From Phascolarctobacterium sp. ET69 (GTDB lineage: Bacteria > Bacillota > Negativicutes > Acidaminococcales > Acidaminococcaceae): a stretch of DNA of 64,000 nucleotides. Location of the stretch: positions 62,001-126,000 of the forward strand of contig NZ_JAMBLR010000003.1 in assembly GCF_023336935.1 (NCBI RefSeq). The letters run 5' to 3'. A program made the position numbers and the translations under genes. Below are positions 7,378 through 27,738 of this stretch, one piece after another (the stretch's first letter is position 1; each line of letters opens with the position of its first letter). The notes under the pieces are model-generated. The model was not told where the DNA came from. It ran no database searches and worked only from the letters and a program-made list of their open reading frames with translations.

Positions 7378-7396
7378 AGTCTGTTCTCCTTATTTT

Positions 7397-7567: not shown

Positions 7568-7626
7568 AAACCATCAGGGCTTTGTGCTATATTGCTGCAA
7601 GTTTTAAGCTGCATTTTTAAAACCAT
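7564..7626 (-). CDS. 20-codon ORF, possible leader peptide
   Basis: ATG 7626 is preceded by a very good SD (ATGGAGG) and reads MVLKMQLKTC SNIAQSPDGL before a stop that overlaps the start of the 56-residue ORF. It could be a leader peptide coupling translation, or the debris of a decayed gene. No family is recognised. Confidence 0.3.
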   Translation of the reverse strand: MVLKMQLKTCSNIAQSPDGL

Positions 7627-7662
7627 AATAAAACCTCCATAATCAATTGCTTTTTTGTTTAT

Positions 7663-7692
7663 CTATCTGCCACTGCCAGAACGCGGCGGCAT
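7663..7692 (-). other. nine-codon ORF behind a strong ribosome binding site
   Basis: AAAGGAGGG (about 7699-7707) precedes ATG 7692, which reads MPPRSGSGR and stops. It lies just after the terminator of the upstream LysR gene and before the 20-codon ORF. It is either a leader peptide or a vestige of a lost gene; nothing else is coded in this stretch. Confidence 0.25.
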
Positions 7693-7716
7693 TGCCAGCC
7701 CTCCTTTATCAATATT

Positions 7717-7752
7717 ATAAAAAAACAGGGGCTTCATAAGAAGTCCCTGTTT
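7717..7752 (-). terminator. terminator after the LysR gene
   Basis: Stem AACAGGG(A)CTTC/GAAGCCCCTGTT with a four-base loop on the minus strand, followed by a run of at least seven T residues (7717-7724). Confidence 0.8.
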
Positions 7753-7775
7753 GTCAGTGAGCTTAAACCCTATGG

Positions 7776-8678: not shown

Positions 8679-8693
8679 AATAAATCACTTCTT

Positions 8694-9077
8694 TTAAATG
8701 CACTCGCAGCCCATGTTGTTGCTGCGGAATGCGCCCTGTTCGTAAAGTTCAATTTTATGGTTCAGGCGGCTCAGCGTTTCCTGCATGTGCTGCAAACGGT
8801 TTTCCAGCCTGTCGCGTTCTGCAATTAAAAGTTCTTCGCGTTCTTTTAAGGTGCTGTCGCCCTCTAAAAACAGGTGCATGTAACGGGTCAGCACTTCAAT
8901 GGAAAGCCCTGCTTCACGCATACATTTAATAAATTCTATGCGCTCGCAGTCAATGCTGCTGTAATCGCGGTTGCCGCTTTTGTTGCGCGCTATGGCCGGC
9001 AGCAGGCCAATGCGCTCGTAATAGCGCAGCGTGTCGGCCGTAAGGCCGAATTTTTTGCTTACTTCTGCAATGTTCAT
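8694..9077 (-). CDS. MerR-family transcriptional regulator
   Basis: A 127-residue MerR-family protein: winged helix at 1-70 (MNIAEVSKKFGLTADTLRYYERIGLLP and the GNRDYSSIDCERIEFIKCMREAGLS pattern), a dimerising coiled coil (about 78-112) and a short C-terminus ending GCECI. It resembles the AdhR/YraB group that answers to reactive aldehydes or thiol stress rather than metals, but the two terminal cysteines leave this open. A GAGGTGA site precedes ATG 9077. It follows the lipoprotein phosphoesterase and a 35-codon ORF, and likely acts on the divergent 19-bp-spacer promoters at 10539-10622. Confidence 0.9.
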   Translation of the reverse strand: MNIAEVSKKFGLTADTLRYYERIGLLPAIARNKSGNRDYSSIDCERIEFIKCMREAGLSIEVLTRYMHLFLEGDSTLKEREELLIAERDRLENRLQHMQETLSRLNHKIELYEQGAFRSNNMGCECI

Positions 9078-9108
9078 GTCTGGTCACCTCGTGTAAATTA
9101 GCCGCGCT

Positions 9109-9216
9109 TTAAGCGGACAGGATTTTATAGGCGCTGCATACGGCTACGCGCCCGCTGATGTTGATAATGGTGTAAATAACGGCAAGGGCTGCTGCGCATT
9201 GCAGTAAAACCTTCAT
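9109..9216 (-). CDS. small hydrophobic peptide (35 aa)
   Basis: ATG 9216 lies three bases after the stop of the phosphoesterase gene, with AGAGGGGGAA just upstream, and reads 35 codons: MKVLLQCAAALAVIYTIINI, then SGRVAVCSAYKILSA. A single hydrophobic helix fills the first 20 residues. The tight spacing to the genes on both sides (the MerR gene starts 32 bp further) suggests a coupled small membrane peptide of the operon. I recognise no family. Confidence 0.45.
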   Translation of the reverse strand: MKVLLQCAAALAVIYTIINISGRVAVCSAYKILSA

Positions 9217-9219
9217 AAA

Positions 9220-10494
9220 TTATTCCCCCTCTTTGGTGATGGTTACGGTATCAAATTCGGTTCCGTCCGGCAAAAATGCTTTAAAGGTTAATGTTTGCGG
9301 AGTTTTGCTGAGCGTTATGTAGTTGGCGTCCTCGGGCTGCGGCGCAAGGGCTGCGTCCGCCGTGTTGCGCTGCCACAGGTTGGCGTAGCGCACGCTTCCG
9401 GCAACGCCGGTTAAAATATAGGTTATGCCGGTGTTATCGGGCTTAAAGGCTTTTAAAGGCACGCGGCGGCGGTAGGTATGCAGGTGCGCCGTAAGCACGG
9501 CGTCTACATTATATTCTTCAAAAACGGGCATCAGCTGCTGCGCCCAGGGTGTAAACTGAATGCTTGCCGGGTCAAAGTTGTTGGGGCGGTCGGTAAAGGC
9601 ATAACGCAGAATGTCTTTATGCATCAGCACAATTTTCCATTTGCTTTGCGTGCCGGCAAGGTCGCTGCGCAGCCAGCTTAATTGCTGCTGCATTAAATCG
9701 GGGTTAAAGTCAGCCATTTCGTCGGTCTGCGTGTTCAGCACAACAAAATGCACATCGCCGTAGTCAAAGCTGTAATACTGGTTTTTATTGGCATCGGTGC
9801 CGTTTTCCGGCAGGTTAAACAGCGTTAAATACGGCGTCGGCGGGGCAATCTGCCAGTCCATATTGTAGGTTTCGTGGTTGCCCATTACCGGCGCAAACGG
9901 AATGTTTTCAATCATTGGCGCAACAGAATTAAACCAGGCGCGCCACTGCGAAAAATCGTAGCCGTTGTCAACCAAATCGCCCATGTTGATAAAAAAGGCG
10001 GCGTCTTCATTTTTGCTGTAGGCAGTTTGTGCCAGCTTGCGCCAGCCGCTGTAATCGGATGACTGCGAATCGGGAAATATCAGCGCTTTAAAGCTGTCCG
10101 GCTGAGCGGACGGAAGTTTGTGCCAGCCGGTGCGGCTGCCTTCGTAGCCTGCGCGGTATTCGTAGGCACTTCCGGGTTCAAGCCCTGTCAGCGCGGAGGT
10201 GTAAACATAAAGGGTGCCGCTGCCGGTGTTAAGCTCCTGCATGGAAGCAGGCACGGCTGTTATTTGCCCTGCGGCGTTTTTATATTCGGCCGCCGGGTTT
10301 TCAAGCTTTTCATCAGCCTGCCACATAATGGTGCGGCTTGTTGAAGCGTCGGCGGTAATCAGCTGGCGCAGAAAGCTTATTTTATCCGCGTCGGCGTAAT
10401 TTTCGGACTGTCCGGTTGCAGGTGCCGTATATACGGCGCAGCCCGCAGCCAAAAATACCGCCAGTACAATAATGTATTTAAGATATTTTTTCAT
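9220..10494 (-). CDS. lipoprotein metallophosphoesterase (purple acid phosphatase-like)
   Basis: A calcineurin-like phosphoesterase of about 424 residues, exported and lipid-anchored: basic start, hydrophobic stretch and lipobox LAAGC near residue 19. An N-terminal fibronectin-like part (YVYTSALTGLEPGSAYEYRAGY) is followed by the metal-site motifs FPDSQ, NMGDLVDNG, VMGNHETY, LMHKD and LTAHLHTYRR. This order is that of purple acid phosphatases, which hydrolyse phosphomonoesters. ATG 10494 is chosen because AAAGGAG is only two bases from the other ATG at 10500. It heads the operon with the 35-codon ORF, MerR and LysR genes. Confidence 0.88.
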   Translation of the reverse strand: MKKYLKYIIVLAVFLAAGCAVYTAPATGQSENYADADKISFLRQLITADASTSRTIMWQADEKLENPAAEYKNAAGQITAVPASMQELNTGSGTLYVYTSALTGLEPGSAYEYRAGYEGSRTGWHKLPSAQPDSFKALIFPDSQSSDYSGWRKLAQTAYSKNEDAAFFINMGDLVDNGYDFSQWRAWFNSVAPMIENIPFAPVMGNHETYNMDWQIAPPTPYLTLFNLPENGTDANKNQYYSFDYGDVHFVVLNTQTDEMADFNPDLMQQQLSWLRSDLAGTQSKWKIVLMHKDILRYAFTDRPNNFDPASIQFTPWAQQLMPVFEEYNVDAVLTAHLHTYRRRVPLKAFKPDNTGITYILTGVAGSVRYANLWQRNTADAALAPQPEDANYITLSKTPQTLTFKAFLPDGTEFDTVTITKEGE

Positions 10495-10538
10495 AGGCAT
10501 TACTCCTTTTAAAACAGCGTAATTTTGTGGCTAATATT

Positions 10539-10569
10539 AATATATCAGTTATAGTGAACTTCAAGTCAA
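10539..10569 (-). promoter_or_regulatory. MerR-type promoter of the lipoprotein phosphoesterase
   Basis: On the minus strand TTGACT (10564-10569) and TATATT (10539-10544) are separated by 19 bp. The spacer holds GAAGTTCACT, a dyad of the kind MerR proteins bind. The overlong spacer is the hallmark of MerR-activated promoters. Confidence 0.65.
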
Positions 10570-10591
10570 GCGGTTTTCAAAAATTTTTTAC

Positions 10592-10622
10592 TTGACTTAA
10601 AGTGCACTCCAAAGTATATATT
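10592..10622 (+). promoter_or_regulatory. MerR-type promoter of the membrane phosphoesterase
   Basis: TTGACT (10592-10597), a 19-bp spacer and TATATT (10617-10622). The spacer contains AAAGTGCACTCC, an imperfect dyad centred on GTGCAC. The arrangement mirrors the divergent promoter 23 bp away. Confidence 0.7.
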
Positions 10623-10652
10623 ATATAAAACGAACAATAAAGGAGAATGCCG

Positions 10653-11747
10653 ATGAACCTTTTTATGATTGTTATGTATTCGTATCTGGCCGCCATGGGC
10701 ATTGCCGTATGGTTTTACTACCGCACTCTTATTCCGGGGCTTACGTCATGGCTGTGGCCGCTTGCCGTAGTTGGCTGCACTGCAAGCTACCTTGTAAGCC
10801 ACAGCGGCTATATCGTTCACCCGGAGCCTCTTGCACGCGCACTGGCGTGGATTGGCAATGTATGGATTCTGTTCGGTTTTTACAGCCTTTTGCTGATGCT
10901 TTTAAACGGCGTTTTAATTATACCGGCCAAAATTTTCGGCGTGCATTACCGTTTCAGCACACCGCTGGCCGTGATTGGGCTTGTTGTTATAAGTGCTTCC
11001 ATTATTTTTGGCATTTATAAAGCCATGAACCCCATAGTGCGTACGGAAACGGTGGCTGCCACTAAAAATATTGAAGGCGATACCAAAATAGTGCTGGTAA
11101 CGGATTTGCACCTTGGGCATATTAATGCACTTGGCGCAGCGCAGGACGTTGTGCAGCGCATAAACACCCAAAAGCCGGATCTGGTTTTGATAGGCGGCGA
11201 TATTGTTGACGAAAAGCTCAGCTATGTGCTGGATAACGGTTCGCTGGAAGCATTGAAATTTGATGCGCCGCTGGGAACTTATGCCGTTTACGGCAACCAT
11301 GATTACCTTGACGGCGAAATGAAGGAAATACGCAGGATTTTAGGGTCAAACGGCATTACGCTGCTGGAAAATGAAAGCGCCGTGCTGCCGCAGGGCATAA
11401 AACTTACCGGCCTGCGAGATTACAGCCGCGACCGCGGTACGGAAGCTCTGGAACGCCTGGCAGAAGGCAATGCTGATTATTTCAGCGTTTTAATCGACCA
11501 TCAGCCGCGGCGCTTGTTTGAAGCCGCCAAGGCAGGATATGACTTGAGCGTTTCCGGGCATACCCATGCCGGGCAGGTATGGCCGTTCCGCTATATTACC
11601 CAAAGCATGTACCTGCTTGACTACGGCATGACCTATGTTGACGGCATGGCGGCAATAGTAAGCAACGGCAACGGCTTCTGGGGTCCGCCGGTGCGCATGG
11701 GCCCATACCCCGAAATTGTTGTTATCAACGTTAAAAAAGCAGGCTAA
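10653..11747 (+). CDS. membrane-anchored metallophosphoesterase (YkuE/YaeI-like)
   Basis: A 364-residue protein with four N-terminal hydrophobic segments (to about residue 125) and a C-terminal calcineurin-like phosphoesterase domain with DLHLGH, GGDIVDE, YGNHDYLDG and SGHTHAGQVWP. Relatives such as YkuE and YaeI are metal-dependent phosphoesterases at the membrane. ATG 10653 fits the AAAGGAG site better than the ATG two codons upstream. It is divergent from another phosphoesterase, and both have MerR-type promoters. Confidence 0.9.
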   Translation: MNLFMIVMYSYLAAMGIAVWFYYRTLIPGLTSWLWPLAVVGCTASYLVSHSGYIVHPEPLARALAWIGNVWILFGFYSLLLMLLNGVLIIPAKIFGVHYRFSTPLAVIGLVVISASIIFGIYKAMNPIVRTETVAATKNIEGDTKIVLVTDLHLGHINALGAAQDVVQRINTQKPDLVLIGGDIVDEKLSYVLDNGSLEALKFDAPLGTYAVYGNHDYLDGEMKEIRRILGSNGITLLENESAVLPQGIKLTGLRDYSRDRGTEALERLAEGNADYFSVLIDHQPRRLFEAAKAGYDLSVSGHTHAGQVWPFRYITQSMYLLDYGMTYVDGMAAIVSNGNGFWGPPVRMGPYPEIVVINVKKAG

Positions 11748-11754
11748 AATTCAG

Positions 11755-11779
11755 CACCGCTCAAACGGGCGGTGTTTTT
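11755..11779 (+). terminator. terminator of the membrane phosphoesterase gene
   Basis: CACCGC/GCGGTG stem with an eight-base loop, followed by TTTTT. Confidence 0.75.
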
Positions 11780-11885
11780 CTTTGTAAGAAACATGTTAAG
11801 CAAACCGTTAAACTGTAATTTTTTTAACAATGTATATTTAAAATTGCGTTTTGTACACAAAATCCTTACAAAAATAACAAAATAC

Positions 11886-11952
11886 TTGCCTGTAAAACGC
11901 TAAAGTGCTACAATTTATAATTATAAAAGTACACCATAATTTGCATTGTACT
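11886..11952 (+). promoter_or_regulatory. aminotransferase promoter with AGTACA inverted repeat
   Basis: TTGCCT (11886-11891), 17 bp, TACAAT (11909-11914). Just downstream is an inverted repeat AAAAGTACA (11925-11933) and ATTGTACT (11945-11952). The half-site AGTACAAT is the same as in the perfect operator of the XRE-cupin/LysE pair at 13832-13871, so the two loci may share a regulator. Confidence 0.5.
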
Positions 11953-11983
11953 GATTTTAAAAAGTATTTGGAGGGAAAGAAAA

Positions 11984-13165
11984 ATGAAATTTGCCAAACG
12001 TATGGAAAGGATGCAGGCATCCGAAATCCGTGAACTCTTAAAACTTACCGCACAGCCGGATATTATCTCTTTTGCAGGCGGCCTGCCCGCACCGGAACTG
12101 TTCCCGGTTGAAGAAATTGCCAAAGTTTCCCATGACCTGGTAGAAAAAGAAGGCCGTCAGCTGCTGCAATACGCAACTACCGAAGGCCGCCCGACCCTGC
12201 GCGCTAAAATTGCCAAACGCATGAAAGATAAATACCATACCGAAGTTGACCCGGACGACATTCTTATTACCACCGGCAGCCAGCAGTGCCTTGATTTTGC
12301 AGGCAAACTGTTCCTTGACCCCGGCGATGTTGTTCTGTGCGAAAGCCCGTCCTATCTCGGCGCATTGAACGCTTTCAATGCTTACGAGCCTAAATTTGTA
12401 GAAGTTCCGACCGATGACGGCGGCCTGATTCCGGAAGAACTGGATAAAATTCTTGCCACTACCCCGAACTGCAAATTCATTTATGTAATTCCTGATTTCC
12501 AGAACCCGACCGGCCGCACCTGGAGCCTTGAACGCCGCCATAAATTTATGGAAGTTGTCAACAAATATAACCTGCCGGTACTGGAAGACAATCCGTACGG
12601 CGAACTCCGCTACGAAGGCGAAATTCTTCCTTCCCTTAAATCCATGGATACCAAAGGCCTTGTTATGTTCCTCGGCACTTTCTCCAAAATCTTCTGCCCG
12701 GGCCTGCGCTTAGGCTGGGTTGCCGCAGAACATTCCGTACTGGAAGAATTTGTTAAAATCAAACAAAGCGCCGACCTGCATACTTCCAACTTCGACCAGG
12801 GCGTTGCCGACGCTTACATTGAAAACTACGACCTTGACAAACACGTTGAAGAAATTAAAGCGCTGTACAAAAAACGCCGCGACCTTATCCTGAAAACAAT
12901 GGAAGAAGAATTCCCCGAAGGCGTTGAATGGACTCGTCCTGAAGGCGGCCTGTTCCTGTGGGTAACCGTTCCGGAAGGTGTAAGCGCCAAAGAAGTATTC
13001 CATAAATGCATTGAAATGAAAGTTGCTGCCGTTATCGGCGATGCCTTCTATCCGAATGACAAAACCGACCGCAGCATGCGCGTAAACTACTCCAACATGA
13101 CCGAAGACAGAATTGTTGAAGGCGTTAAACGTATGGCTAAAGCCATTAAAGAATGCATGAAATAA
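11984..13165 (+). CDS. PLP-dependent aminotransferase (LysN/MocR-domain type)
   Basis: A 393-residue fold-type I aminotransferase of the subgroup that includes 2-aminoadipate transaminase and MocR C-terminal domains. Visible are the N-terminal ISFAGGLPAPELFP, the TTGSQQCLDF turn, IPDFQNPTGRTWS and the PLP lysine in GTFSKIFCPGLRLGW, where the Arg binds the substrate carboxylate. It probably transaminates branched-chain, aromatic or 2-aminoadipate substrates in the cytoplasm. Codon use is strongly biased, as for a highly expressed gene. GGAGGG precedes ATG 11984. Confidence 0.92.
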   Translation: MKFAKRMERMQASEIRELLKLTAQPDIISFAGGLPAPELFPVEEIAKVSHDLVEKEGRQLLQYATTEGRPTLRAKIAKRMKDKYHTEVDPDDILITTGSQQCLDFAGKLFLDPGDVVLCESPSYLGALNAFNAYEPKFVEVPTDDGGLIPEELDKILATTPNCKFIYVIPDFQNPTGRTWSLERRHKFMEVVNKYNLPVLEDNPYGELRYEGEILPSLKSMDTKGLVMFLGTFSKIFCPGLRLGWVAAEHSVLEEFVKIKQSADLHTSNFDQGVADAYIENYDLDKHVEEIKALYKKRRDLILKTMEEEFPEGVEWTRPEGGLFLWVTVPEGVSAKEVFHKCIEMKVAAVIGDAFYPNDKTDRSMRVNYSNMTEDRIVEGVKRMAKAIKECMK

Positions 13166-17734: not shown

Positions 17735-17985
17735 CAACAAAAACATAGCAGCAATTATGTAATGATTAAAGGCGAAGAACGGGAACAGGCTGTTAAAACC
17801 GGCAAAGAGAAGCGGCGGATGGTGCAAGCCGCAGCGGCAAAGCAGCAAAAGCTCGCCCGGGAGCCGCGCTTTTGAACGGAGTAGGAAGCGACGCAGAGCA
17901 GCGTTAAGCATAATGAAGCCCCAATCAGGGTGGTACCGCGGTTAATAATCGCCCCTGTCTGCATTAGTGCAGGCAGGGGTTTTTT
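17735..17985 (+). ncRNA. T-box leader, probably leucine-specific
   Basis: The invariant T-box AGGGTGGTACCGCG is at 17927-17940. Upstream are the GATGGTGCAAGCCG apical part of stem I, the specifier region AAAAG-CTC-GCCCGGGAGCC with CTC (Leu) at 17852-17854, and GAACGGAGTAGGAAGC of stem III. The terminator CCCCTGTCTGC/GCAGGCAGGGG with T6 is at 17952-17985. Uncharged tRNA(Leu) would stabilise the antiterminator and allow leuCDB expression. The specifier choice agrees with the downstream genes. Confidence 0.93.
17952..17985 (+). terminator. T-box terminator
   Basis: Eleven-base stem CCCCTGTCTGC/GCAGGCAGGGG with one G-U pair and six T residues; the regulated terminator of the leucine T-box. Confidence 0.9.
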
Positions 17986-18025: not shown

Positions 18026-19288
18026 ATGGGAATGACAATGACGGAGAAGATACTGGCAAAACACGCCGGACGCCCCGAAGTATCGGCAGGCGACCTGTTG
18101 GTATCGCAGGTGGATTTGGTGCTGGCTAACGATATTACAGGCCCGCCGGCAATTAATGAGTTCAAAAAAATCGGCAAACCGGTTTTTGACAAAAATAAAA
18201 TTGCGCTTGTGCCGGATCATTTTTCTCCCTGCAAGGATATTAAAGCGGCTACCATGTGCAAAACCATGCGTGATTTTGCGCGTGAAAACGAAATTAAAAA
18301 CTATTTTGAAGTTGGGCGCATGGGTATTGAGCATACCCTGCTGCCGGACAACGGGCTTGTTGCGCCGGGCGAAATTGTTATCGGCGCGGATTCGCACACC
18401 TGCACTTACGGTGCGGTAAACGCGCTTTCTACCGGCATGGGTTCTACGGATATCGGCTGCGCCATGGCAAGCGGCACCAGCTGGTTTAAAGTACCGGCTG
18501 CCATTAAGGTTGAACTTACCGGCAAGCTGCCGCGCTTTGTAAAAGGCAAGGACGTTATTTTAACTTTAATCGGCATGATTGGCGTTGACGGCGCGCGTTA
18601 CCAGTCGCTGGAATTCTGCGGCGACGGCGTGGCAGAACTGGAAATGGCAGACCGCTTTACCATTTGCAACATGGCGATTGAAGCAGGCGCCAAAAACGGC
18701 ATTTTCCCGGTGGACGAAAAAACAAAAGCTTACCTTAAAGGCCGTGTAGACCGCGACTGGCAGGGCGTTGAGGCTGACGCCGACGCAAACTATGTGCGCG
18801 AAATTAAAATTGAACTTGATAAACTTGTACCTGTTGTTGCTTATCCGCACCTGCCGGAAAATACGCACCCGGCAGCGGAAGGGCGCGATATTAAAATCGA
18901 CCAGGTTGTTGTGGGCAGCTGCACGAACGGACGCCTTGAAGATTTGGCGCAGGCTGCGGAAGTGCTGAAGGGACGCAAGGTTCATCCTTCCGTACGCTGC
19001 ATTATCATCCCTGCAACGCAGGAAATTTATAAAGAAGCCATGAAACTTGGCTATATTGATACCTTTATTGATGCCGGTGCGGCTGTTTCCACCCCGACCT
19101 GCGGGCCGTGCCTTGGTGGGTATATGGGCATTCTGGCTGCGGGCGAAAGGGCTGTTTCCACAACCAACCGCAACTTCCGCGGGCGTATGGGCCATGTAGA
19201 CAGCGAGGTTTACCTGGCAAGCCCGTACACGGCGGCTGCAAGCGCAGTAACCGGTTATATTACCAGCCCCGAGGAGGTAATGAAATGA
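18026..19288 (+). CDS. leuC: 3-isopropylmalate dehydratase large subunit
   Basis: A 420-residue aconitase-family protein that binds the [4Fe-4S] cluster and, with LeuD, isomerises 2- to 3-isopropylmalate in leucine synthesis. Cluster cysteines are seen in [18 protein letters not shown] and [11 protein letters not shown]. The length matches the shorter archaeal-type (HacA-like) LeuC common in anaerobic Bacillota, not the roughly 466-residue enterobacterial form. An AGGAGG site lies upstream, and its stop overlaps the leuD start (ATGA). Confidence 0.95.
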
Positions 19289-19777: not shown

Positions 19778-20848
19778 ATGAAGATAACTTTACTGCCGGG
19801 CGACGGTATCGGCGTGGAAATTGTTGACGCTGCCGTTGAAGTACTGGACGCAGCGGCTAAAAAATATAACTTTACCGTTGAATACGATAAAAAACTGATT
19901 GGCGGTGCGGCTATTGACGCTTTCGGCACGCCGCTGCCGGAAGAAACTCTGGCAAGTGCCAAAGCAAGCGACGCAGTGCTTTTGGGTGCGGTAGGCGGCC
20001 CGAAATGGGATAATGTTGACCCTTCCATCCGCCCGGAAAAAGGCCTGTTAAACATCCGCAAAGGGCTGGGGCTGTACTGCAACCTGCGCCCGATGAAGGT
20101 TTCCAAATATACGGCGCATCTCAGCCCGCTTAAAACCGAACGTGCCGAAGGTGCTGACCTTTTAATTGTACGCGAACTGACCGGCGGTATTTACTTTGGC
20201 ACGCATAACGAAGCACATCTTAACGCCGACGGCGTGGAAGAAGCAAGCGACATTGAAATGTACACCCGCCCGGAAGTAGAGCGCATTGCCCGCTTTGCCT
20301 TTGAAGCGGCTCGCAAACGCGGCGGCAAGGTAACAAGCGTTGATAAAGCCAACGTGCTGGGCAGCAGCCGTATGTGGCGCAAAATTGTTACCGAAATGCG
20401 CGACAAGGAATACACCGACGTTGAACTGAACCATTTTTATGTAGATAACTGCGCCATGCAGCTGGTGCTGAACCCGAAACAGTTTGACGTTGTTTTAACC
20501 AATAACATTTTCGGTGATATTTTAAGTGACGAAGCAAGCACCATTGCAGGCAGCATCGGTTTACTGCCGAGTGCAAGCCTAGGCGACGGAGCAGGCATGT
20601 ATGAGCCTATCCACGGCAGTGCGCCTGATATTGCGGGGCAGGGCATTGCCAACCCGCTGGCTACCATTTTAAGCGTTGCCATGATGCTGCGCTATTCGCT
20701 GAACCAGGACGTAGCGGCAGACGCAGTTGAACGCGCCGTTGACGAAGTGCTGGAAGCAGGCTACCGCACGCCTGACCTGTGGGCGGAAGGCCTGAAGAAA
20801 GTAAGCACTGCCGAAATGGGCAAGCTTGTAGCGGAAGCAGTAAAATAA
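19778..20848 (+). CDS. leuB: 3-isopropylmalate dehydrogenase
   Basis: A 356-residue NAD-dependent beta-decarboxylating dehydrogenase for the third step of leucine synthesis. Evident are LLPGDGIGVEIV at the N-terminus, the substrate-binding RKGLGLYCNLRPMKV, VRELTGGIYFG, the metal-binding NIFGDILSDEASTIAGSIGLLPSASLG and the NAD-binding EPIHGSAPDIAGQGIANPLA. It follows leuD after one base with GGAGAA just ahead. Confidence 0.97.
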   Translation: MKITLLPGDGIGVEIVDAAVEVLDAAAKKYNFTVEYDKKLIGGAAIDAFGTPLPEETLASAKASDAVLLGAVGGPKWDNVDPSIRPEKGLLNIRKGLGLYCNLRPMKVSKYTAHLSPLKTERAEGADLLIVRELTGGIYFGTHNEAHLNADGVEEASDIEMYTRPEVERIARFAFEAARKRGGKVTSVDKANVLGSSRMWRKIVTEMRDKEYTDVELNHFYVDNCAMQLVLNPKQFDVVLTNNIFGDILSDEASTIAGSIGLLPSASLGDGAGMYEPIHGSAPDIAGQGIANPLATILSVAMMLRYSLNQDVAADAVERAVDEVLEAGYRTPDLWAEGLKKVSTAEMGKLVAEAVK

Positions 20849-20959: not shown

Positions 20960-21092
20960 TTGCCAAAAAATTTTTAATGTGCTATACTTACATCAATCTG
21001 TTTAACGCCGGTTAAGCAGGTGCCTTTATTTATGTATCGCAGGCCTTAGAAGATACATAAATAAGGGCATTTTTTGTTTTAACCGCATTTTT
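20960..21092 (+). repeat. left copy of a 133-bp direct repeat (orphan leader)
   Basis: Identical to 26988-27120 except A21055 for G27083. It carries a promoter (TTGCCA, 17 bp, TATACT at 20983-20988), a small hairpin CTGTTTAAC/GGTTAAGCAG, a long terminator stem GCCTTTATTTATGTATC/GATACATAAATAAGGGC with T6, and a GTTTTAACCGC tail. No gene follows it in its own direction: the next ORF is on the opposite strand. It marks the left end of the AT-rich island. Confidence 0.93.
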
Positions 21093-21214
21093 GATAACAG
21101 ACGTCTATCAAAATATGTGAAGAAAGATGTTCAGTCATTTTCTTTGATGAGAGTAATTTGTTATATTCTACATAACAATCGTTTGACAACACTTTTTTTG
21201 TAAACAACAAAGAA

Positions 21215-21883
21215 TTATATAAACAAATATGTTAATTTATCGCAATAAATTTTATATGATTCATCGAACGAAATTTTTATACAAGTTATTTTTCCACCTA
21301 AGCTTGTAACTTCAGCTAATAATTGACCTGCTTTTTTTGTTGTATCAAATATTATTTTCTCAATTTGAGGTGCGAACGCTACTATAAAATATTCGGCTTG
21401 ATATCCTTTGGACAATAATGAGCAAATGCTTTGTAACTGGTTGATTGCTCTTTGACTTTTCATATTTGGTATCAACAAAACTTTATCTTCTGTAATTATA
21501 CTTTTTACTTCAACTATTGTTTTAGATGTATTTGAATAAAAATCGCACTTGTAATTATCAATAACTTGCTCTGGATAAAATAAATCTTTATATTCAGCTA
21601 AGTGTGCTTTTACAATATGATTTGCAAATCCTGTATCAACAATAAAATAATCTTTGTTGTTTCGAACCGCAAATAAAGTATATTTTAATCGTTTAGCTGC
21701 TTTGGTTGACGCTCTTATCAAAATATCTTTGTTATTCAAAGATATTAATTTACTAAGTTTGCACGTAATCGGAACATAACACTCAAAAACATCATCGTTA
21801 TATGAAATATTGCAAATGAATCTGCTTTTTCCTTCTGATATAAATACGGCTTTATATAGTTTGAAATCTATAATATTAAGCAT
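21215..21883 (-). CDS. SfsA-like protein with PD-(D/E)XK-type motif
   Basis: About 222 residues, recognisably but distantly related to SfsA (sugar fermentation stimulation protein): the ECYVPITCKLSKLI, KLKYTLFAV, YFIVDTGFANHIV and KSQRAINQLQSICSLLSKGYQ segments follow the SfsA order. SfsA has a nuclease-like fold, and here Asp114 and Glu125-x-Lys127 (IVEVKS) fit a PD-(D/E)XK site. Inside an R-M island it may act as a nuclease or repair factor (inference). ATG 21883 with AGAGGT is preferred to the TTG at 21904. It is divergent from the XRE gene. Confidence 0.65.
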   Translation of the reverse strand: MLNIIDFKLYKAVFISEGKSRFICNISYNDDVFECYVPITCKLSKLISLNNKDILIRASTKAAKRLKYTLFAVRNNKDYFIVDTGFANHIVKAHLAEYKDLFYPEQVIDNYKCDFYSNTSKTIVEVKSIITEDKVLLIPNMKSQRAINQLQSICSLLSKGYQAEYFIVAFAPQIEKIIFDTTKKAGQLLAEVTSLGGKITCIKISFDESYKIYCDKLTYLFI

Positions 21884-21887
21884 ATAA

Positions 21888-22012
21888 TCTACCTCTTGAT
21901 TCAAATTGTATCATAAAAATATATAATAATCAATCTCGAGCAACCGATAGCATGGAATAATTTTCCCTTAAATCATAAAAATATTGCATACTATCGAATT
22001 TAATGGTATAAT
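21888..22012. promoter_or_regulatory. divergent promoters with XRE operator candidate
   Basis: Plus strand: TTGCAT (21984-21989), 17 bp, TATAAT (22007-22012) for the XRE gene. Minus strand: TTGATT and TACAAT with 17 bp for the SfsA-like gene. The inverted repeat CGATAGCATG (21945-21954) and CATACTATCG (21987-21996) has one mismatch in ten, and its right arm overlaps the plus-strand -35 region, as expected for a controller (C-protein-like) site. Confidence 0.6.
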
Positions 22013-22045
22013 TTAATTGCTGTATTTGAAAGCGAGGTATCTGTT

Positions 22046-22252
22046 ATGGCTGTTTCGTACAATAAACTATGGAAACTTCTTATTGATAAGAATATGAAAA
22101 AAATGGAATTGAAAAAAGCTGCAGGTATTGGTTCTACAACTTTGTCAAAACTAAGCAAAAATCAGCCTGTGTCAATGGAAGTCATGATTAAACTGTGTGG
22201 TGTCTTGGGGTGTAATATTGGAGACATTATGGATGTTATTGAAAATAACTAG
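22046..22252 (+). CDS. small XRE-family regulator (possible R-M controller)
   Basis: A 68-residue protein that is almost only a Cro/C1-type helix-turn-helix: YNKLWKLLIDKNMKKMELKKAAGIGSTTLSKLSKNQPVSMEVMIKLCGVLGCNIGDIMDV. Such small regulators often control R-M genes and act as timing devices. It lies 15 bp before the first methyltransferase gene and has a dyad in its own promoter. GCGAGGT precedes ATG 22046. Confidence 0.88.
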   Translation: MAVSYNKLWKLLIDKNMKKMELKKAAGIGSTTLSKLSKNQPVSMEVMIKLCGVLGCNIGDIMDVIENN

Positions 22253-22267
22253 AAAGGAGAGTTTGTT

Positions 22268-23680
22268 ATGAGTCTTGCTCAAAACGCTTACATAGATGCT
22301 TCTAATGTATATGAAAACTCTCTTGAAAACAGTTATAAAAAAGTTAATGGAGTTTTTTATACAGACCTATCACTTGCCGAAAAAATGTTAACAGAACTGA
22401 AACTTCCAAAAGATACAATAATAATGGATCCTTGCTGTGGATCAGGAGTTTTTCTTTATGCCGCTAAAAAACATGGCTTTATCAATCTTTTTGGTGCAGA
22501 CAAAGATAAAAATGCTATCAAATTTTGCTTGAATAATATTAACAATGTTTCTTTTATCGTCTGCGATTCTATTGGCCAAACAGCTTCTACTCTGTTGAGT
22601 GAATTTGAAGAGATTAATCAACCTGATGTTGTTATAGGTAATCCACCTTATGTTCCTTTGTCTGGTGATATTGAATTAAACTGTGATTATCTTTTTAGAC
22701 GTAGAGTGTCTGATTTCGGTAACAATTTGTTTGTAGCAGCATTAGTACGAGCTTTTGAAATCGTAAAAACTAATGGTATTGTATCTTATATAATTCCAAA
22801 AAACTTTTTGCATGTTGCTGGATATAGCCTATTGCGGAGAACAATTCTTGAAGAAAAAACTATTGTTTCTATAATAGATATTGGAGCTTATTTCAAGAAT
22901 GTTCGAGGAGAGCAAATTATTCTTACAGTAAAAAATTGTGTAGCAGATAGAAAGCATAAAATCAAGTTGAAAAAGTTATCAAGTAATCGTTTTGTAACTA
23001 TGTGCAATATTCCTCAATCGTTTTACAAAGATGAAATACTAATTTTTAATTGTTCAGAAGATTATTCAACTTATAAAAAACTAATTTCCTCATATCAAAC
23101 ATTAGCCGATTTATGTAATGGTTATGTAGGTAGAGGAAAATCTGTTTCAACAGATGCGATAGCAGGGAAAGAAATACGTAAATTTGGATATAAAAATCAT
23201 ACTGTTCCCACAACTGGTAATAAGCTTTTCATCCAAAATATTTATAGTGCAGAAGCTGGTATAATAGCTGCTTTTGGCGGTAATATGGAAGCAACACAGA
23301 CGGTTACTGTATTCACAGATGGTGACGAGAAAATGTGTCGTTACATATTGGGCATACTTCATTCACGGTTGTGTAATTTTTTCTTGTACAAATACTGTTA
23401 TAATTACTCTAAACTTACAATGCATACAGATGCAAAATACTTAAAGAAAATACCACTTCCGTCAACTAATCAACAAGAAATATATTTTGATTCTATACTC
23501 AGCTTAGTTAGCAGATTAGAAAGCAATGATTATATGAGTCAAGAATGGTTCGACTGTTTAGAAGAATTAAATCAGATAGTATACAAAGCATACGGTATTA
23601 ATAAAAAAGAATCTGATTATATTGATTGTGAAGTAAAAAGAATTCAGTCTAAAAGGTGGATATCCGATGGTCAATTCTAA
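22268..23680 (+). CDS. N6-adenine DNA methyltransferase (TaqI/Eco57I-like)
   Basis: A 470-residue DNA methyltransferase. The AdoMet-binding motif I is DPCCGSGVFLYAA (from residue 54) and the catalytic motif IV is NPPY (125-128), in the order of gamma-class adenine methyltransferases. The C-terminal half (about 250-470) would be the target-recognition domain. AGAAAGGAG precedes ATG 22268. Its last 14 bases overlap the next methyltransferase gene, so both are coexpressed. Target sequence unknown. Confidence 0.9.
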   Translation: MSLAQNAYIDASNVYENSLENSYKKVNGVFYTDLSLAEKMLTELKLPKDTIIMDPCCGSGVFLYAAKKHGFINLFGADKDKNAIKFCLNNINNVSFIVCDSIGQTASTLLSEFEEINQPDVVIGNPPYVPLSGDIELNCDYLFRRRVSDFGNNLFVAALVRAFEIVKTNGIVSYIIPKNFLHVAGYSLLRRTILEEKTIVSIIDIGAYFKNVRGEQIILTVKNCVADRKHKIKLKKLSSNRFVTMCNIPQSFYKDEILIFNCSEDYSTYKKLISSYQTLADLCNGYVGRGKSVSTDAIAGKEIRKFGYKNHTVPTTGNKLFIQNIYSAEAGIIAAFGGNMEATQTVTVFTDGDEKMCRYILGILHSRLCNFFLYKYCYNYSKLTMHTDAKYLKKIPLPSTNQQEIYFDSILSLVSRLESNDYMSQEWFDCLEELNQIVYKAYGINKKESDYIDCEVKRIQSKRWISDGQF

Positions 23681-24440
23681 AAAATGCAATGATCTTACTG
23701 GAAAAGAGTGGCTTCAAAATTCTTTTAGCATTTGGCGAGATTTATCCAAAACAAAAGAAGAAAAAGATTTTAAGCATCCAGCATCTTATCCGGTTTCGTT
23801 ATGCGAAAAACTAATACGTACTTTTTCAAAAGCAAATTCGTGTGTATTAGATCCTTTTAATGGTATTGGCTCTACAACTGTAGCTGCACAAAAGCTTGGA
23901 TGTGAGGCTGTAGGGATTGATTTATCTGATGCTTTTTGTAATATAGCAAAACAACGTGTGGGAAAAGATGATAAAATTCAGATAATTAATGGTGATAGTT
24001 TTGAAGTGTTAAAAATGCTTCCTGCAAATCACTTTGATATTTGTGTCACATCTCCACCATATTGGGATATTCTCAATATGAAACGCAGCGCTGACCAAAA
24101 AGAGGCTATAAATTACTCTGATAAGACTAATGATATTGGAAATATTGCAAATTATAATGAATTTGTAAATACGTTATCAAACCTTTTTGTTTCAGTTAAT
24201 AGAGTTTTGAAAAAAGGTGGTTATTGTATTGTAAATGTAATGGATATTCGCAAAAAAAGCAATTTTTATCCTTTGCATAGTGATTTAGCTACAGCATTAC
24301 AAAAGGTCGGATTTATTTACGATGATCTAATTATTTGGGATAGACAAGCAGATTACAATAATATGCGTCCGCTAGGATATCCATACAAATTTCGTATCAA
24401 CAAGGTTCACGAATACCTTTTGATATTTATCAAGGAGTAG
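23667..24440 (+). CDS. second DNA methyltransferase (TSPPY type)
   Basis: A 257-residue methyltransferase with motif I LDPFNGIGSTTVAAQKLGCEAVGID (from residue 61) followed by TSPPYWDIL (128-136). SPPY is usual for N4-cytosine and some N6-adenine enzymes. Motif I preceding motif IV is the permuted order relative to beta-class enzymes. The N-terminal WLQNSFSIWRDL and KHPASYPVSLCEKLI segments are typical of R-M-linked members. A pair of methyltransferases suggests an asymmetric target modified strand by strand. Confidence 0.88.
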   Translation: MVNSKKCNDLTGKEWLQNSFSIWRDLSKTKEEKDFKHPASYPVSLCEKLIRTFSKANSCVLDPFNGIGSTTVAAQKLGCEAVGIDLSDAFCNIAKQRVGKDDKIQIINGDSFEVLKMLPANHFDICVTSPPYWDILNMKRSADQKEAINYSDKTNDIGNIANYNEFVNTLSNLFVSVNRVLKKGGYCIVNVMDIRKKSNFYPLHSDLATALQKVGFIYDDLIIWDRQADYNNMRPLGYPYKFRINKVHEYLLIFIKE

Positions 24441-24445
24441 ATGTT

Positions 24446-24901
24446 ATGACGTTGTTAAGTTCAAGGGCTTCAGATATTAATGTATCAATAGCCGAACTTT
24501 GCTTGATACTTGGATATATGAGCACTCCTGGAAGGGTAGGTTTGATTGAGGCGCAAATTCCAGAAGAGAAAGCATTTATGTTTGAACGAGAATTTCCAGG
24601 GGAGCCTTATTATCCAATAACTCAAGGTGAAACTACCGGTGGCAATATAATGAAACAAGGTTGTCAACTACGTATATATTTTTTAAACACAAGGAATTGT
24701 CCGATAATTCTATTACCACATCTTAAGGCTGGAGTTGGTAATTATGTAAATAGAATTAATCGAGGAAAATTTATTGAACGAATAGTTAAAAATTATGGTT
24801 TTTGTTTTGGTGAACATCAAAATGCTGCAACAATACGTGCCATTGTAGCACGTTTGCACCCTACAAACGTTGTAGATTTCGATCGTGGTTATAATTTGTA
24901 A
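24446..24901 (+). CDS. unknown protein of the R-M island (151 aa)
   Basis: I do not recognise this protein. It follows the second methyltransferase after five bases, with AAGGAG upstream of ATG 24446, so it is translated with it. No signal peptide or membrane segment is seen. Notable are the segments LCLILGYMSTPGRVGLIEAQIPEE, PYYPITQGETTGGN and GFCFGEHQNAATIRAIVARLHP; several charged residues could form a catalytic site, but no classical nuclease motif is evident. By position it is a candidate restriction subunit or accessory factor. Confidence 0.7.
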   Translation: MTLLSSRASDINVSIAELCLILGYMSTPGRVGLIEAQIPEEKAFMFEREFPGEPYYPITQGETTGGNIMKQGCQLRIYFLNTRNCPIILLPHLKAGVGNYVNRINRGKFIERIVKNYGFCFGEHQNAATIRAIVARLHPTNVVDFDRGYNL

Positions 24902-25233
24902 TTGATTAATTTACAATAGAAAGAATTTGAATTTTCTATATCATATTAAGCACAAAGGTGGATAATTCTTTGTAGAATCAAGGCGAGAAACAATAATCAT
25001 ATTTATTAATGACATGTGCCGCTATTACAATTGAGTTTGCTGGAATAATTGTATTGCAAAAAATGCTAATTTAAATTATATTTTGGAGTTCCTTCTTTTC
25101 AGTCTTCTAACATAGCTCAATTGTCCGAAAGAAGTAAAGTATAAAAGACCGATTGTTTGTGTTTTCTAAATAATAAATAATAATGTTTATTTTATTGGTA
25201 AAAAATAAGAATAAAATAAAAGGTTGTGATTGT
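24902..25233. other. AT-rich gap inside the island
   Basis: No supportable gene. Short open stretches are interrupted by stops in all frames. The segment before 25233 contains AT-rich promoter-like sequence and the AAGGTTGTG ribosome binding site of the next gene. The gap separates the methyltransferase unit from the nuclease unit, so the latter may have its own promoter. Confidence 0.5.
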
Positions 25234-26121
25234 ATGAATCGAGAAATGTCTTATCTTTTAGGTATGATTTGTGGCAATGGAGAAGTAAGACGTGGTGTAT
25301 CAGAAACCACCATATCTATTGAAATTCCACACAAAAAACTGGCAACAGAAAATAATAACGATGTTAGAATATATGTACGTGCAAGTATAACCGATATTCG
25401 CACAGTATTAGAACCATTAATTGGTACAGGATTAAACTTTACTCAGCAGGATAATTATTCTATTATTTCTTTTACTAAAAAAAATGATGAATATATGATG
25501 AGAGAGATTTTACGTTATATTGACAATGCTGTATCTCATGAAAATATAAGAATTGATGAAGAAGTGTTTTCTTTTACTCGTGATGAAAAAATTTCTTTTT
25601 TACAAGGCTTTGCTGATGTTACAGGTTATATTCGTAGAAGCAACTATTTCTTTAAAACCTATATGCATCGAGTTTACTTAGAGGTACCACATAATTGGTA
25701 CTTGGTAAGTGATATTTGTCGTTTACTTAAAGATGTCAATATTCCTGTACAAGCAATAGATTGGGCTCATCCTAATATGCGTGACGGAAATCTTGTTAAA
25801 TACGAAGAAGGAAAATCTGACTTTTGGAAAAAGGAACATCAAATTAAAATATGGGCAAATGAATTTTTGCCCATAGGATTTGCTGTTTTACACAAAAGAG
25901 AAGCTCTTGCTCAGTTTGCAACAGAATTAGTTGATGGTATTCAATCAGAGGGTAAAATCCCCAAAGAAGTAACTCACAAATTCTATTGGGATGGTCGAGA
26001 AAGAATTAGAATCAAACCACATCATCCATGTGAAAATGATGAATTTATTCCATTAGAAATTAGGGGAAAACACTATGATTCGTGGAAGCAGATAGCTAAA
26101 GATTTAGGATACGGAGAATAA
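25234..26121 (+). CDS. LAGLIDADG-like DNA-binding protein, catalytic acids substituted
   Basis: A 295-residue protein with two segments matching LAGLIDADG helices: YLLGMICGNGE (7-17) and FLQGFADVTGYI (122-133), about 115 residues apart as in a single-chain double-motif homing endonuclease. Aligned to LAGLIDADG, the catalytic eighth-position Asp is Asn in the first and Thr in the second, so canonical cleavage looks lost. DNA recognition by the fold may remain. It is translated four bases ahead of a PD-(D/E)XK nuclease gene. ATG 25234 is chosen over an upstream start by its ribosome binding site. Confidence 0.65.
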   Translation: MNREMSYLLGMICGNGEVRRGVSETTISIEIPHKKLATENNNDVRIYVRASITDIRTVLEPLIGTGLNFTQQDNYSIISFTKKNDEYMMREILRYIDNAVSHENIRIDEEVFSFTRDEKISFLQGFADVTGYIRRSNYFFKTYMHRVYLEVPHNWYLVSDICRLLKDVNIPVQAIDWAHPNMRDGNLVKYEEGKSDFWKKEHQIKIWANEFLPIGFAVLHKREALAQFATELVDGIQSEGKIPKEVTHKFYWDGRERIRIKPHHPCENDEFIPLEIRGKHYDSWKQIAKDLGYGE

Positions 26122-26125
26122 TGTT

Positions 26126-26605
26126 ATGAGGGAATTTGACTTATATCCACCAATGCAATTATGGCTTAAAACATATCTGAAGAATAAATACAAATCTGCT
26201 GATGAAATAATTGTCGTGGACGCACATAGTGAACGGTTGGACAGAGTTCTTAGAAAGTATAATATAATTCAAGAGGAAGCTATCGGTGTAGATATTCAAA
26301 TTGATGTTCTCGGCATTGTAAAGAACGCAGATAAGTTCAAACTATTTTTTATTGAAGCAAAAAAGACAAGTTTAACTTTACGTGATTTAGGCCAACTGTG
26401 GGCGTATTGCAAACTGATTGATCCGGAAGAAGCATTTTTAATGACTTCTGCGAACTTGGGATCATTAAATAAACTTTTCAATGTTTACAAAAGGGATGAT
26501 TTACTTGATTTTGGTGATGGTAAACGTATTAAAAAGATGAAAATAGCTATTTGGAATATGCAAACCAATGCACCGGATTTTGCAAGTATGATTCCCAAAA
26601 TTTAA
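26126..26605 (+). CDS. PD-(D/E)XK nuclease-fold protein
   Basis: A 159-residue protein whose core reads VDIQIDVLGIV then KLFFIEAKKTSLTLRDLGQLWAYC. Asp60 and Glu77-Ala-Lys79 form a PD-(D/E)XK site, and the following Gln/Trp helix is usual in restriction-type nucleases of this fold. It follows the LAGLIDADG-like gene after four bases. I infer that it is the cutting subunit of a two-gene restriction enzyme, with the partner providing DNA recognition. Confidence 0.72.
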   Translation: MREFDLYPPMQLWLKTYLKNKYKSADEIIVVDAHSERLDRVLRKYNIIQEEAIGVDIQIDVLGIVKNADKFKLFFIEAKKTSLTLRDLGQLWAYCKLIDPEEAFLMTSANLGSLNKLFNVYKRDDLLDFGDGKRIKKMKIAIWNMQTNAPDFASMIPKI

Positions 26606-26987
26606 TTATTAAATAAAAATGCAGAGATGGTTTTACTGTATCATTTCATGAATTATTGGAATATCACAAAATTATATATAATTTTATTAACCGTGTTGAT
26701 TCTGTCGTGGTTTTCAAGTACTCTTTTAAAAGAATGAAATTTTGAGTTTTTCATTAATCTGTTATAACGATTGATATATTAGTGTTATATTCTTTTATGT
26801 ATTATTTGTAATTTATCAATATTAGTAATATTACCAGATAAAGTACGGTTTATCAACAAATTTGTATTAAATATTTTCTGTTTATATGTTATACCCATTT
26901 GTTCAAATACTTTTTTACAATTTTAAACCGTTGTGCGCAAACTATTTGGTTTATACTTTGTTAGATATTTAATTTCAGATACGTTGT
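26606..26987. other. AT-rich non-coding right end of the island
   Basis: No convincing gene. A stretch of about 44 open codons on the minus strand (roughly 26795-26930) has no ribosome binding site and is not recognisable; it may be gene debris. The right-hand copy of the 133-bp repeat starts at 26988. Confidence 0.5.
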
Positions 26988-27120
26988 TTGCCAAAAAATT
27001 TTTAATGTGCTATACTTACATCAATCTGTTTAACGCCGGTTAAGCAGGTGCCTTTATTTATGTATCGCAGGCCTTAGAAGATGCATAAATAAGGGCATTT
27101 TTTGTTTTAACCGCATTTTT
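26988..27120 (+). repeat. right copy of the 133-bp direct repeat: attenuator leader of the SMR gene
   Basis: Promoter TTGCCA (26988-26993), 17 bp, TATACT (27011-27016), then a structured leader: hairpin CTGTTTAAC/GGTTAAGCAG, terminator GCCTTTATTTATGTATC/GATGCATAAATAAGGGC (27050-27096) with T6 (27098-27103), and a tail whose TTAACCG (27107-27113) can pair with CGGTTAA (27037-27043). AAGGAGG of the SMR gene begins one base after the repeat. This is a transcription attenuator and a candidate riboswitch; because the gene encodes a guanidinium-type exporter, guanidine is the natural ligand to test. I could not match it to guanidine-I, -II or -III consensus. Confidence 0.75.
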
Positions 27121-27137
27121 AAGGAGGTTTTTAATTC

Positions 27138-27458
27138 ATGGCATGGTTAGATTTATTTATAGCGGGTATTTTTGAGGTTGTATGGTCTACCTGCTTAAAG
27201 TACTCGCACGGATTTACCAATGTAATGTTTACGGTTTTAACATTTATCGGCATGGGTTTCAGTTTCTGGTTTCTGGCGCACGCGGTTAAATCGCTGCCGA
27301 TGGGCACGGCTTATGCCATCTGGACTGGCATTGGCGCGCTGGGAGCCGTTATAGTGGGCGTTATTTTGTTTAAGGAACCGGTTACGCTGGTGCGTTTATT
27401 TTTTGTGGCAATGCTTTTAACAGGCATTATCGGCTTAAAATTAACATCCGGTCAGTAA
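27138..27458 (+). CDS. SugE/Gdx-type SMR exporter (guanidinium)
   Basis: A 106-residue, four-helix small multidrug resistance protein of the inner membrane, working as an antiparallel dimer. The first helix GIFEVVWSTCLKYS (Glu13, Trp16) and the later AYAIWTGIGALGAV match SugE/Gdx guanidinium/proton antiporters rather than EmrE-like polyspecific pumps. AAGGAGG lies 10 bases before ATG 27138. It is preceded by the attenuator leader, a copy of which lies 6 kb upstream beyond the island. Confidence 0.9.
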   Translation: MAWLDLFIAGIFEVVWSTCLKYSHGFTNVMFTVLTFIGMGFSFWFLAHAVKSLPMGTAYAIWTGIGALGAVIVGVILFKEPVTLVRLFFVAMLLTGIIGLKLTSGQ

Positions 27459-27483
27459 ATTAAATAAGGAAGGATTATGCAGG

Positions 27484-27510
27484 GCTGCCGTTATTAGCGG
27501 CAGCTTTTTT
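27484..27510 (+). terminator. SMR gene terminator
   Basis: GCTGCCG/CGGCAGC stem with a seven-base loop followed by TTTTTT. Confidence 0.85.
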
Positions 27511-27560
27511 ATTATGCGCTGCCCGTTTTTTGGGCAAATGTATCATTTGATACGGAAAAT

Positions 27561-27574
27561 TTTTGTATACAAAA
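27561..27574. promoter_or_regulatory. palindromic operator candidate upstream of the ABC operon
   Basis: Perfect palindrome TTTTGTATACAAAA in the 225-bp region between the SMR terminator and the ABC transporter. A second dyad GTATCATTTGATAC lies just upstream. Both could be operators; no dedicated regulator is adjacent. Confidence 0.35.
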
Positions 27575-27738
27575 TAAAAGACAGATGTGTTTGCATTTTT
27601 CTGAATAATGTGTTAAATTAATGTTAAATATTAGTTAAATAAAAGTAAAAATACAGTTAAATTTTTAACTTTTATTTTGACGCACAATATTTTAAGCTGC
27701 CTTGGCGTTACGCAGGGCAGGAAAATTAAGGAGGTTTT

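What the first reader, a model, noticed from the sequence alone, without database searches (positions are those of the whole stretch)
26988..27120. Candidate riboswitch/attenuator upstream of a SugE/Gdx exporter
A consensus promoter is followed by a small hairpin, a very long terminator stem with T6, and a tail (TTAACCG) that can pair with CGGTTAA in the small hairpin. SugE-type genes are classic guanidine riboswitch targets, but I see none of the ACGR-type motifs of guanidine-I to -III. The terminator loop GGCC-containing sequence and the hairpin-loop GCC could form a loop-loop contact. It may be guanidine-IV or an undescribed class.
Basis: partly seen in the sequence, partly recalled or inferred. 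Interest (0 to 1): 0.75.

Follow-up and report, generated by a model that had tools for sequence, protein, structure and literature searches.

The report
Guanidine-IV riboswitch before guanidine exporter
The leader before this gut bacterium's guanidine-export gene is almost certainly a guanidine-IV riboswitch, an already described RNA switch; the unexpected part is that a foreign restriction-modification-like island inserted here and left a second complete copy of the switch on its other side.

Summary
At 26988-27120 there is a sigma-70-like promoter, a small hairpin (P1), a 19-bp terminator hairpin (P2) with T6, and a Gdx/SugE gene. The leader folds 6.1 SD better than shuffles. The guessed loop-loop contact (GCC 27035-27037 with GGC 27070-27072) is supported by covariation: over 61 distinct rows the variable pair is A-U in 31, G-C in 22, G-U in 7, never broken. 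Homologues occur in Negativicutes, Clostridia and Bacilli samples, upstream of SMR, MATE, PnuC, PNPOx-like and GNAT genes. Architecture, genes, conserved loop residues and spacing match the published guanidine-IV (GGAM-1/mepA) riboswitch, a ligand-ON termination switch. It is not guanidine-I or -II (Rfam, with positive controls), nor Gd4v as its text defines it. None of 13 such loci scanned matched an Rfam 15 guanidine family. The proposed TTAACCG pairing is not conserved. So: a new member of a known class.

Beyond the finding: the given coordinates are exactly a 133-bp direct repeat. A second copy (20960-21092) lies 6,028 bp upstream. Between them is a 30%-GC restriction-modification-like island absent from the sister species, which has one copy: apparent insertion with long target duplication of a whole promoter-riboswitch-terminator.

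The parts
26988..27016 (+). sigma-70-type promoter, -35 TTGCCA (26988-26993), 17-nt spacer, extended -10 TGC-TATACT (27011-27016); transcription start inferred near 27024
   Evidence: consensus match only; duplicated intact at 20960-20988
27026..27047 (+). P1 hairpin: arms 27026-27034 / 27039-27047, loop GCCG; the GCC at 27035-27037 is the 5' side of the kissing loop
   Evidence: fold; covariation (5 of 6 P1 pairs change on both sides; extra pair at alignment columns 11-16 is CG:52 UA:7 UG:1, never broken)
27048..27098 (+). P2 hairpin = intrinsic terminator: 19 bp (27048-27066 / 27080-27098), apical loop GCAGGCCUUAGAA (27067-27079); GGC 27070-27072 is the 3' side of the kissing loop; zero-nt linker to P1 when fully formed
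27098..27108 (+). U tract of the terminator (T6, G, T4)
   Evidence: sequence
27121..27127 (+). Shine-Dalgarno AAGGAGG, outside the terminator and outside the duplicated unit
   Evidence: sequence
27138..27458 (+). SMR-family exporter of the SugE/Gdx type (106 aa), presumed guanidinium exporter
   Evidence: SugE model best, 117.6 bits, just below its cut-off of 126; best PDB chains 6wk5/6wk8, E 3e-39
20960..21092 (+). second copy of promoter + riboswitch + terminator (riboswitch 20996-21076), 132/133 identical, no exporter behind it
21093..26987 (.). inserted AT-rich island (30% GC versus 47-49% in the flanks) with two DNA methyltransferase genes, absent from sister genome G018
21114..26689 (.). 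part of the island also found (85-88% nt identity) in a genome drawn from the Clostridia sample, i.e. the probable mobile cassette
21215..21904 (-). SfsA-domain protein gene of the island, antisense to read-through from the upstream riboswitch copy
22268..23680 (+). N6-adenine DNA methyltransferase (Eco57I/N6_Mtase type)
23667..24440 (+). N6_N4-type DNA methyltransferase
26126..26605 (+). ORF of the island with a nuclease-like motif by eye (candidate restriction endonuclease, no Pfam or PADLOC hit)
   Evidence: inference

Best explanation
A guanidine-IV (GGAM-1/mepA) riboswitch that controls transcription of a Gdx-type guanidinium exporter. Without guanidine the nascent RNA forms P1 and then the complete P2 terminator stem, and transcription stops at T6. 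With guanidine the P1 loop (GCC) and P2 loop (GGC) kiss around the bound ligand. P1 and P2 abut with no linker, so the kissing complex should be incompatible with closing the lower P2 pairs; the terminator is then not completed and RNA polymerase reads through into sugE/gdx. Shown here: the promoter-like sequence, the predicted fold, the conserved kissing loop, the terminator, homologues and gene contexts. Inferred from the published class: guanidine as ligand, the ON direction and the steric anti-termination. Separately, the 133-bp unit was duplicated, most likely when a restriction-modification-like island inserted, leaving sugE with a complete promoter and riboswitch.
For: Fold z = -6.1. 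A covariance model from 11 SugE leaders finds homologues in 48 of 300 genomes of the class, 66 of 291 of a Clostridia sample and 6 of 398 of a Bacilli sample. On 61 distinct rows 95.5% of cells are paired, 494 both-side-changed cells versus 139 in shuffles, 0/500 shuffles as high; kissing pair A-U 31, G-C 22, G-U 7, none broken. Genes behind 90 homologues: SMR 19, PNPOx-like 19, MATE 18, PnuC 16, radical SAM 5, GNAT 3; SugE, MATE, PnuC and GNAT are genes reported for guanidine-IV (PMC7736828, PMC9788692). The numbered residues of L. lactis 95 Lla (G62, U63, G66, U67, A71, G72) fit by identity and spacing the loop GUAGGUCUUAG of family member L137; the window has G, C, G, C, A, G there. P1 and P2 abut with zero linker, as the published steric model needs. 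The exporter is nearest 6wk5/6wk8.
Against: No experimentally verified guanidine-IV sequence could be aligned: paper figures and supplements are not held, no locus scanned matched an Rfam model of the class, and the residue match is by numbering in the text. The window differs from the homologue consensus in P1 (A-U, A-U instead of G-U, C-G next to the loop) and has a one-nt shorter P2 loop (shared by about 10 of 61 rows, congeners included). No binding or termination data for this sequence.
Confidence: 0.94

Rival explanations
1. A Gd4v-type variant: same fold, but tuned to an unknown ligand rather than guanidine.
For: Gd4v shares the two-hairpin/pseudoknot/terminator architecture and is reported from gut bacteria including Dialister and Mitsuokella (PMC9788692), which are Negativicutes like the window's organism (prior knowledge).
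Against: Gd4v is never found upstream of sugE/COG2076 and its D1 position is never G in the transaminase-linked set. In the window the residue mapped to D1 (G66 of Lla = G27071) is G, as in all 61 rows. The extra hairpin on top of P2 (D2) is absent from the fold. The gene is a Gdx-type exporter.
Confidence: 0.03
2. A ligand-independent attenuator, or an undescribed riboswitch class that happens to precede sugE.
For: No Rfam family matches the leader above its cut-off.
Against: The family has invariant loop residues and a covarying kissing loop across several classes and diverse transporter genes, matching the published class. Absence from Rfam is explained: none of the 12 family loci scanned gave a hit at the leader, while guanidine-I and -II models did hit control loci.
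Confidence: 0.02
3. The tail UUAACCG (27107-27113) pairs with CGGUUAA of P1 (27037-27043) as the antiterminator.
For: Perfect 7-nt complementarity; 0 to 2 of 200 shuffles of the tail reach it.
Against: Seen only in the window copies and the sister species; congeners L111, L112, L114 and all other homologues lack it. The tail is transcribed after the U tract, too late to prevent termination there.
Confidence: 0.02
4. For the repeat: the two copies are an old functional duplication, or the sister lost the island, rather than a target duplication caused by insertion.
For: Only one genome carries the island at this site, so the direction rests on comparison with congeners that have a single copy each, of which G018 has the matching flanks.
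Against: The copies differ at 1 of 133 sites. G018 joins the window's left flank (1,592 bp ungapped, 97.4%) to its right flank with one copy. The island is 30% GC and its methyltransferase was not found elsewhere in 300 genomes of the class, but is 94% identical in protein to one in a genome of the Clostridia sample.
Confidence: 0.1

Closest known systems
Guanidine-IV riboswitch (GGAM-1; mepA motif), PMC7736828
   Same: Two hairpins joined by a loop-loop pseudoknot, second hairpin a terminator, conserved second-loop residues with the same spacing, single CG dimer whose C is paired, upstream of sugE/MATE/PnuC/GNAT genes, found in Firmicutes
   Different: P1 loop is closed by two A-U pairs in this genus; P2 loop one nt shorter than most homologues; ligand response untested here
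Gd4v motif (guanidine-IV variant, unknown ligand), PMC9788692
   Same: Overall fold and terminator platform
   Different: Window has G at the residue mapped to D1, no extra P2-top hairpin, and sugE rather than transaminase downstream
Guanidine-I (RF00442), guanidine-II (RF01068) and guanidine-III riboswitches
   Same: Same kind of target gene (SMR exporters)
   Different: No Rfam match at the leader, while the I and II models hit other sugE leaders
Insertion of restriction-modification units with long target duplication (Nobusato et al. 2000; Furuta et al. 2010, as summarised in PMC3874152)
   Same: Restriction-modification-type island flanked by a direct repeat of the order of 100 bp, single copy at the empty site
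   Different: Here the duplicated target is a complete promoter-riboswitch-terminator; no paper in the held library holds all three terms searched for this combination

Membership tests
Guanidine-IV riboswitch | Two hairpins linked by a loop-loop pseudoknot | tested here: met
   kissing pairs 100% formed in 60 rows, one pair covarying A-U/G-C
Guanidine-IV riboswitch | Second hairpin is an intrinsic terminator | tested here: met
   19-bp stem followed by T6
Guanidine-IV riboswitch | Highly conserved second-loop nucleotides (L. lactis G62, G66, U67, G72; C. botulinum G71) | tested here: met
   Spacing and identity fit member L137 exactly; the window keeps G62, G66, A71 and G72 and has C at U67, which pairs with G27035. 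Mapping is by numbering in the text, not by an aligned sequence
Guanidine-IV riboswitch | Upstream of sugE, MATE, PnuC and GNAT genes | tested here: met
Guanidine-IV riboswitch | Spread over several phyla with conserved core | tested here: inconclusive
   Found in Negativicutes, Clostridia and Bacilli samples; other phyla not searched
Guanidine-IV riboswitch | Binds guanidine and relieves termination | not testable with these tools
   needs in-line probing and a transcription-termination assay
Gd4v variant | D1 position never G | tested here: not met
   mapped residue G27071 is G (mapping inferred)
Gd4v variant | Extra hairpin on top of P2 (D2) | tested here: not met
   13-nt loop unpaired in the window fold
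Gd4v variant | Not associated with sugE/COG2076 | tested here: not met
   Gdx-type exporter directly downstream
Guanidine-I, -II, -III riboswitches | Match to the Rfam covariance model | tested here: not met
   no match; I and II models positive on control loci; no control locus gave a guanidine-III hit
GGAM-6 (Selenomonas sugE leaders) | Consensus structure of GGAM-6 | not tested
   the consensus is in a figure that is not held; reported from a single species only
Insertion with long target duplication | Restriction-modification-type unit flanked by a direct repeat of about 100 bp, single copy in the empty site | tested here: met
   133-bp repeat, G018 empty site, two DNA methyltransferases inside; no restriction enzyme identified by a database

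The most novel reading that the evidence does not exclude
The island's insertion copied a complete guanidine-responsive promoter-riboswitch onto its left edge. That copy now makes guanidine-induced read-through transcript antisense to the island's SfsA-domain gene (21215-21904), so a foreign restriction-modification-like island has come partly under guanidine control while sugE keeps its own regulated promoter.
Probability: 0.1. Interest if true: 0.5.

Novelty: new member of a known kind. Interest (0 to 1): 0.35.

Why it matters
It places a guanidine-IV riboswitch and Gdx-type exporter in Phascolarctobacterium-like gut bacteria, and shows that none of the loci with this leader that I scanned gave an Rfam 15 hit there, so Rfam-based annotation is likely to miss it. 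The wide alignment supports the kissing loop by covariation. The duplicated copy suggests how a restriction-modification-like unit can insert at a regulated gene without breaking its regulation: the long target duplication carried the whole switch.

Tried and rejected
Rfam scan of the leader at E up to 10: only sub-threshold sRNA hits such as SpF19, judged chance. TTAACCG antiterminator: not conserved. Looking for an experimentally verified guanidine-IV sequence: none printed in the held papers; plasmid and phage collections gave only one unannotated Subdoligranulum plasmid hit; supplements not available. Gd4v contrast set: no clear Gd4v homologue was recovered by the model, so Gd4v was judged by its published text features only. 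Relatives of the island methyltransferase on plasmids and viral contigs: none. Inverted repeats or a tRNA gene at the island: none found. Long direct repeats around the related cassette in the Clostridia-sample genome: none.

Full report
What is there. The window lies in contig C3 of a 1.88-Mb genome whose named nearest relatives are uncultured Phascolarctobacterium / Acidaminococcaceae. At 26988-27016 there is a promoter-like TTGCCA-17-TATACT with an extended -10. It is followed by a 9-bp hairpin P1 (27026-27047), a 19-bp hairpin P2 (27048-27098) with T6, an AAGGAGG ribosome-binding site and a 106-aa SMR protein (27138-27458). The leader folds at -36.1 kcal/mol against -17.3 for shuffles, z -6.1.

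The gene. SugE is the best NCBIfam model although the score is just under its cut-off. The nearest solved structures are 6wk5/6wk8, labelled SMR-family multidrug resistance protein, with E 3e-39; EmrE is at 1e-10. I recognise 6wk5/6wk8 as the guanidinium exporter Gdx-Clo from prior knowledge.

Conservation and structure. Leaders of SugE homologues in the family and in Clostridia (L032, L035, L037) carry the same motif. An 11-sequence alignment has 23 of 27 pairs with changes on both sides. A covariance model built from it finds homologues in 48 of 300 genomes of the window's class, 66 of 291 of a Clostridia sample and 6 of 398 of a Bacilli sample. On 61 distinct aligned rows, 95.5% of cells are paired, with 494 both-side changes against 139 in shuffles and 52-113 in slid controls. 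The kissing pair at columns 12-61 is A-U 31, G-C 22, G-U 7 and never broken; an extra pair inside the P1 loop (columns 11-16) is C-G 52, U-A 7, U-G 1. Invariant residues of the P2 loop region are C54, A58, G59, G60, C62, G67, A69 and G70. The sequences are related, so counts overstate independent events, and the alignment was fitted to the model.

Pair failures within P2 are common near the middle of the stem (columns 44-81 and 45-78) as well as at its very base. This suggests an upper aptamer part and a lower terminator part; the window's own P2 is continuous. In predicted folds of 64 homologues P1 and P2 are separated by a median of 3 nt, and by 0 nt in the window. That fits the published steric model in which the completed terminator and the kissing loop exclude each other.

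Membership. Guanidine-IV (GGAM-1, mepA motif) is defined in PMC7736828 by two hairpins with a pseudoknot, the second a terminator, conserved loop residues, and location upstream of sugE, MATE, PnuC and other genes. The features I could test are met; the ligand is not testable here. The genes behind 90 homologues are SMR 19, PNPOx-like 19, MATE 18, PnuC 16, radical SAM 5, GNAT 3 and a few others. The numbered residues of the L. lactis RNA fit family member L137 in identity and spacing; I could not align the L. lactis RNA itself. Rfam 15 gave no match above cut-off for the window leader and none at the leader of the 12 family loci scanned (the one hit there is a TPP riboswitch elsewhere in L190), while guanidine-I and -II models hit control sugE leaders. 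Gd4v is disfavoured by G at the D1-equivalent residue, no extra hairpin and the sugE context; the Gd4v paper's text and legend disagree on its residue 57, so the D1 mapping is an inference.

The promoter, hairpins, terminator, loop-loop contact and guanidine-IV guess are right. The TTAACCG tail pairing is present but only in the window and its sister, and that tail is made after the termination point.

A second copy. The model also hit 20996-21076 in the window. The unit 26988-27120 is a 133-nt direct repeat of 20960-21092 with one mismatch. In sister G018 one copy joins the window's left flank (1,592 bp ungapped, 97.4%) to its right flank (98%); five congeners each have a single copy. The 5.9 kb between the copies is 30% GC against 47-49% around it. 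It encodes an SfsA-domain protein (minus strand), an HTH regulator, two DNA methyltransferases and three ORFs without a significant family match. The first methyltransferase was not found elsewhere in 300 genomes of the class, but a 94% identical protein and 85-88% identical DNA over 21114-26689 occur in a genome of the Clostridia sample, in a different context with neighbours that look by eye like mobile-element genes and without long repeats. The arrangement matches insertion of restriction-modification units with long (order of 100 bp) target duplication (PMC3874152). No restriction enzyme was identified by a database, so 'restriction-modification' is partly inference. The duplicate starts at the -35 hexamer and ends just before the ribosome-binding site, so sugE keeps a complete switch; the upstream copy faces the antisense strand of the SfsA-domain gene.

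Verdict. An ordinary, well-supported new member of the guanidine-IV class, with an unusual local history. Misassembly of the repeat cannot be excluded from sequence alone.

Noticed in passing
window 20960-21092 and 26988-27120: 133-bp direct repeat (one mismatch) carrying promoter, riboswitch and terminator, flanking a 5.9-kb low-GC island with two DNA methyltransferase genes; sister genome G018 has one copy and no island.
   Followed up: yes
L205 (G1000:C2:66000-85900), about 6458-12082 on the reverse strand: The same methyltransferase cassette at 85-88% nt identity in a genome of the Clostridia sample, next to genes that look by eye like mobilisation (relaxase) and TnpV-like proteins: probably recent transfer between classes.
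   Followed up: partly
window 17766-17959: T-box leader (RF00230, 101 bits) directly upstream of a leuC-like gene (18026-19288) and a leuB-like gene (19778-20848).
   Followed up: no
L199 (about 1575 onward): A Bacilli-sample genome with the same riboswitch motif followed by a SugE-like reading frame that has an in-frame TAG early on, by eye a decayed exporter gene.
   Followed up: no
L122, L123, L126, L128-L132, L134, L135 and others: In one Negativicutes family the same riboswitch mostly precedes PNPOx-like flavoprotein genes, and in others radical SAM genes (L133, L136, L138, L185, L187), hinting at further guanidine-linked functions.
   Followed up: partly
window 27483-27601: Sub-threshold Rfam hit (SprD, 25 bits versus cut-off 100) just after sugE; its first part is a GC-rich hairpin with a T run, likely the sugE terminator.
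   Followed up: no
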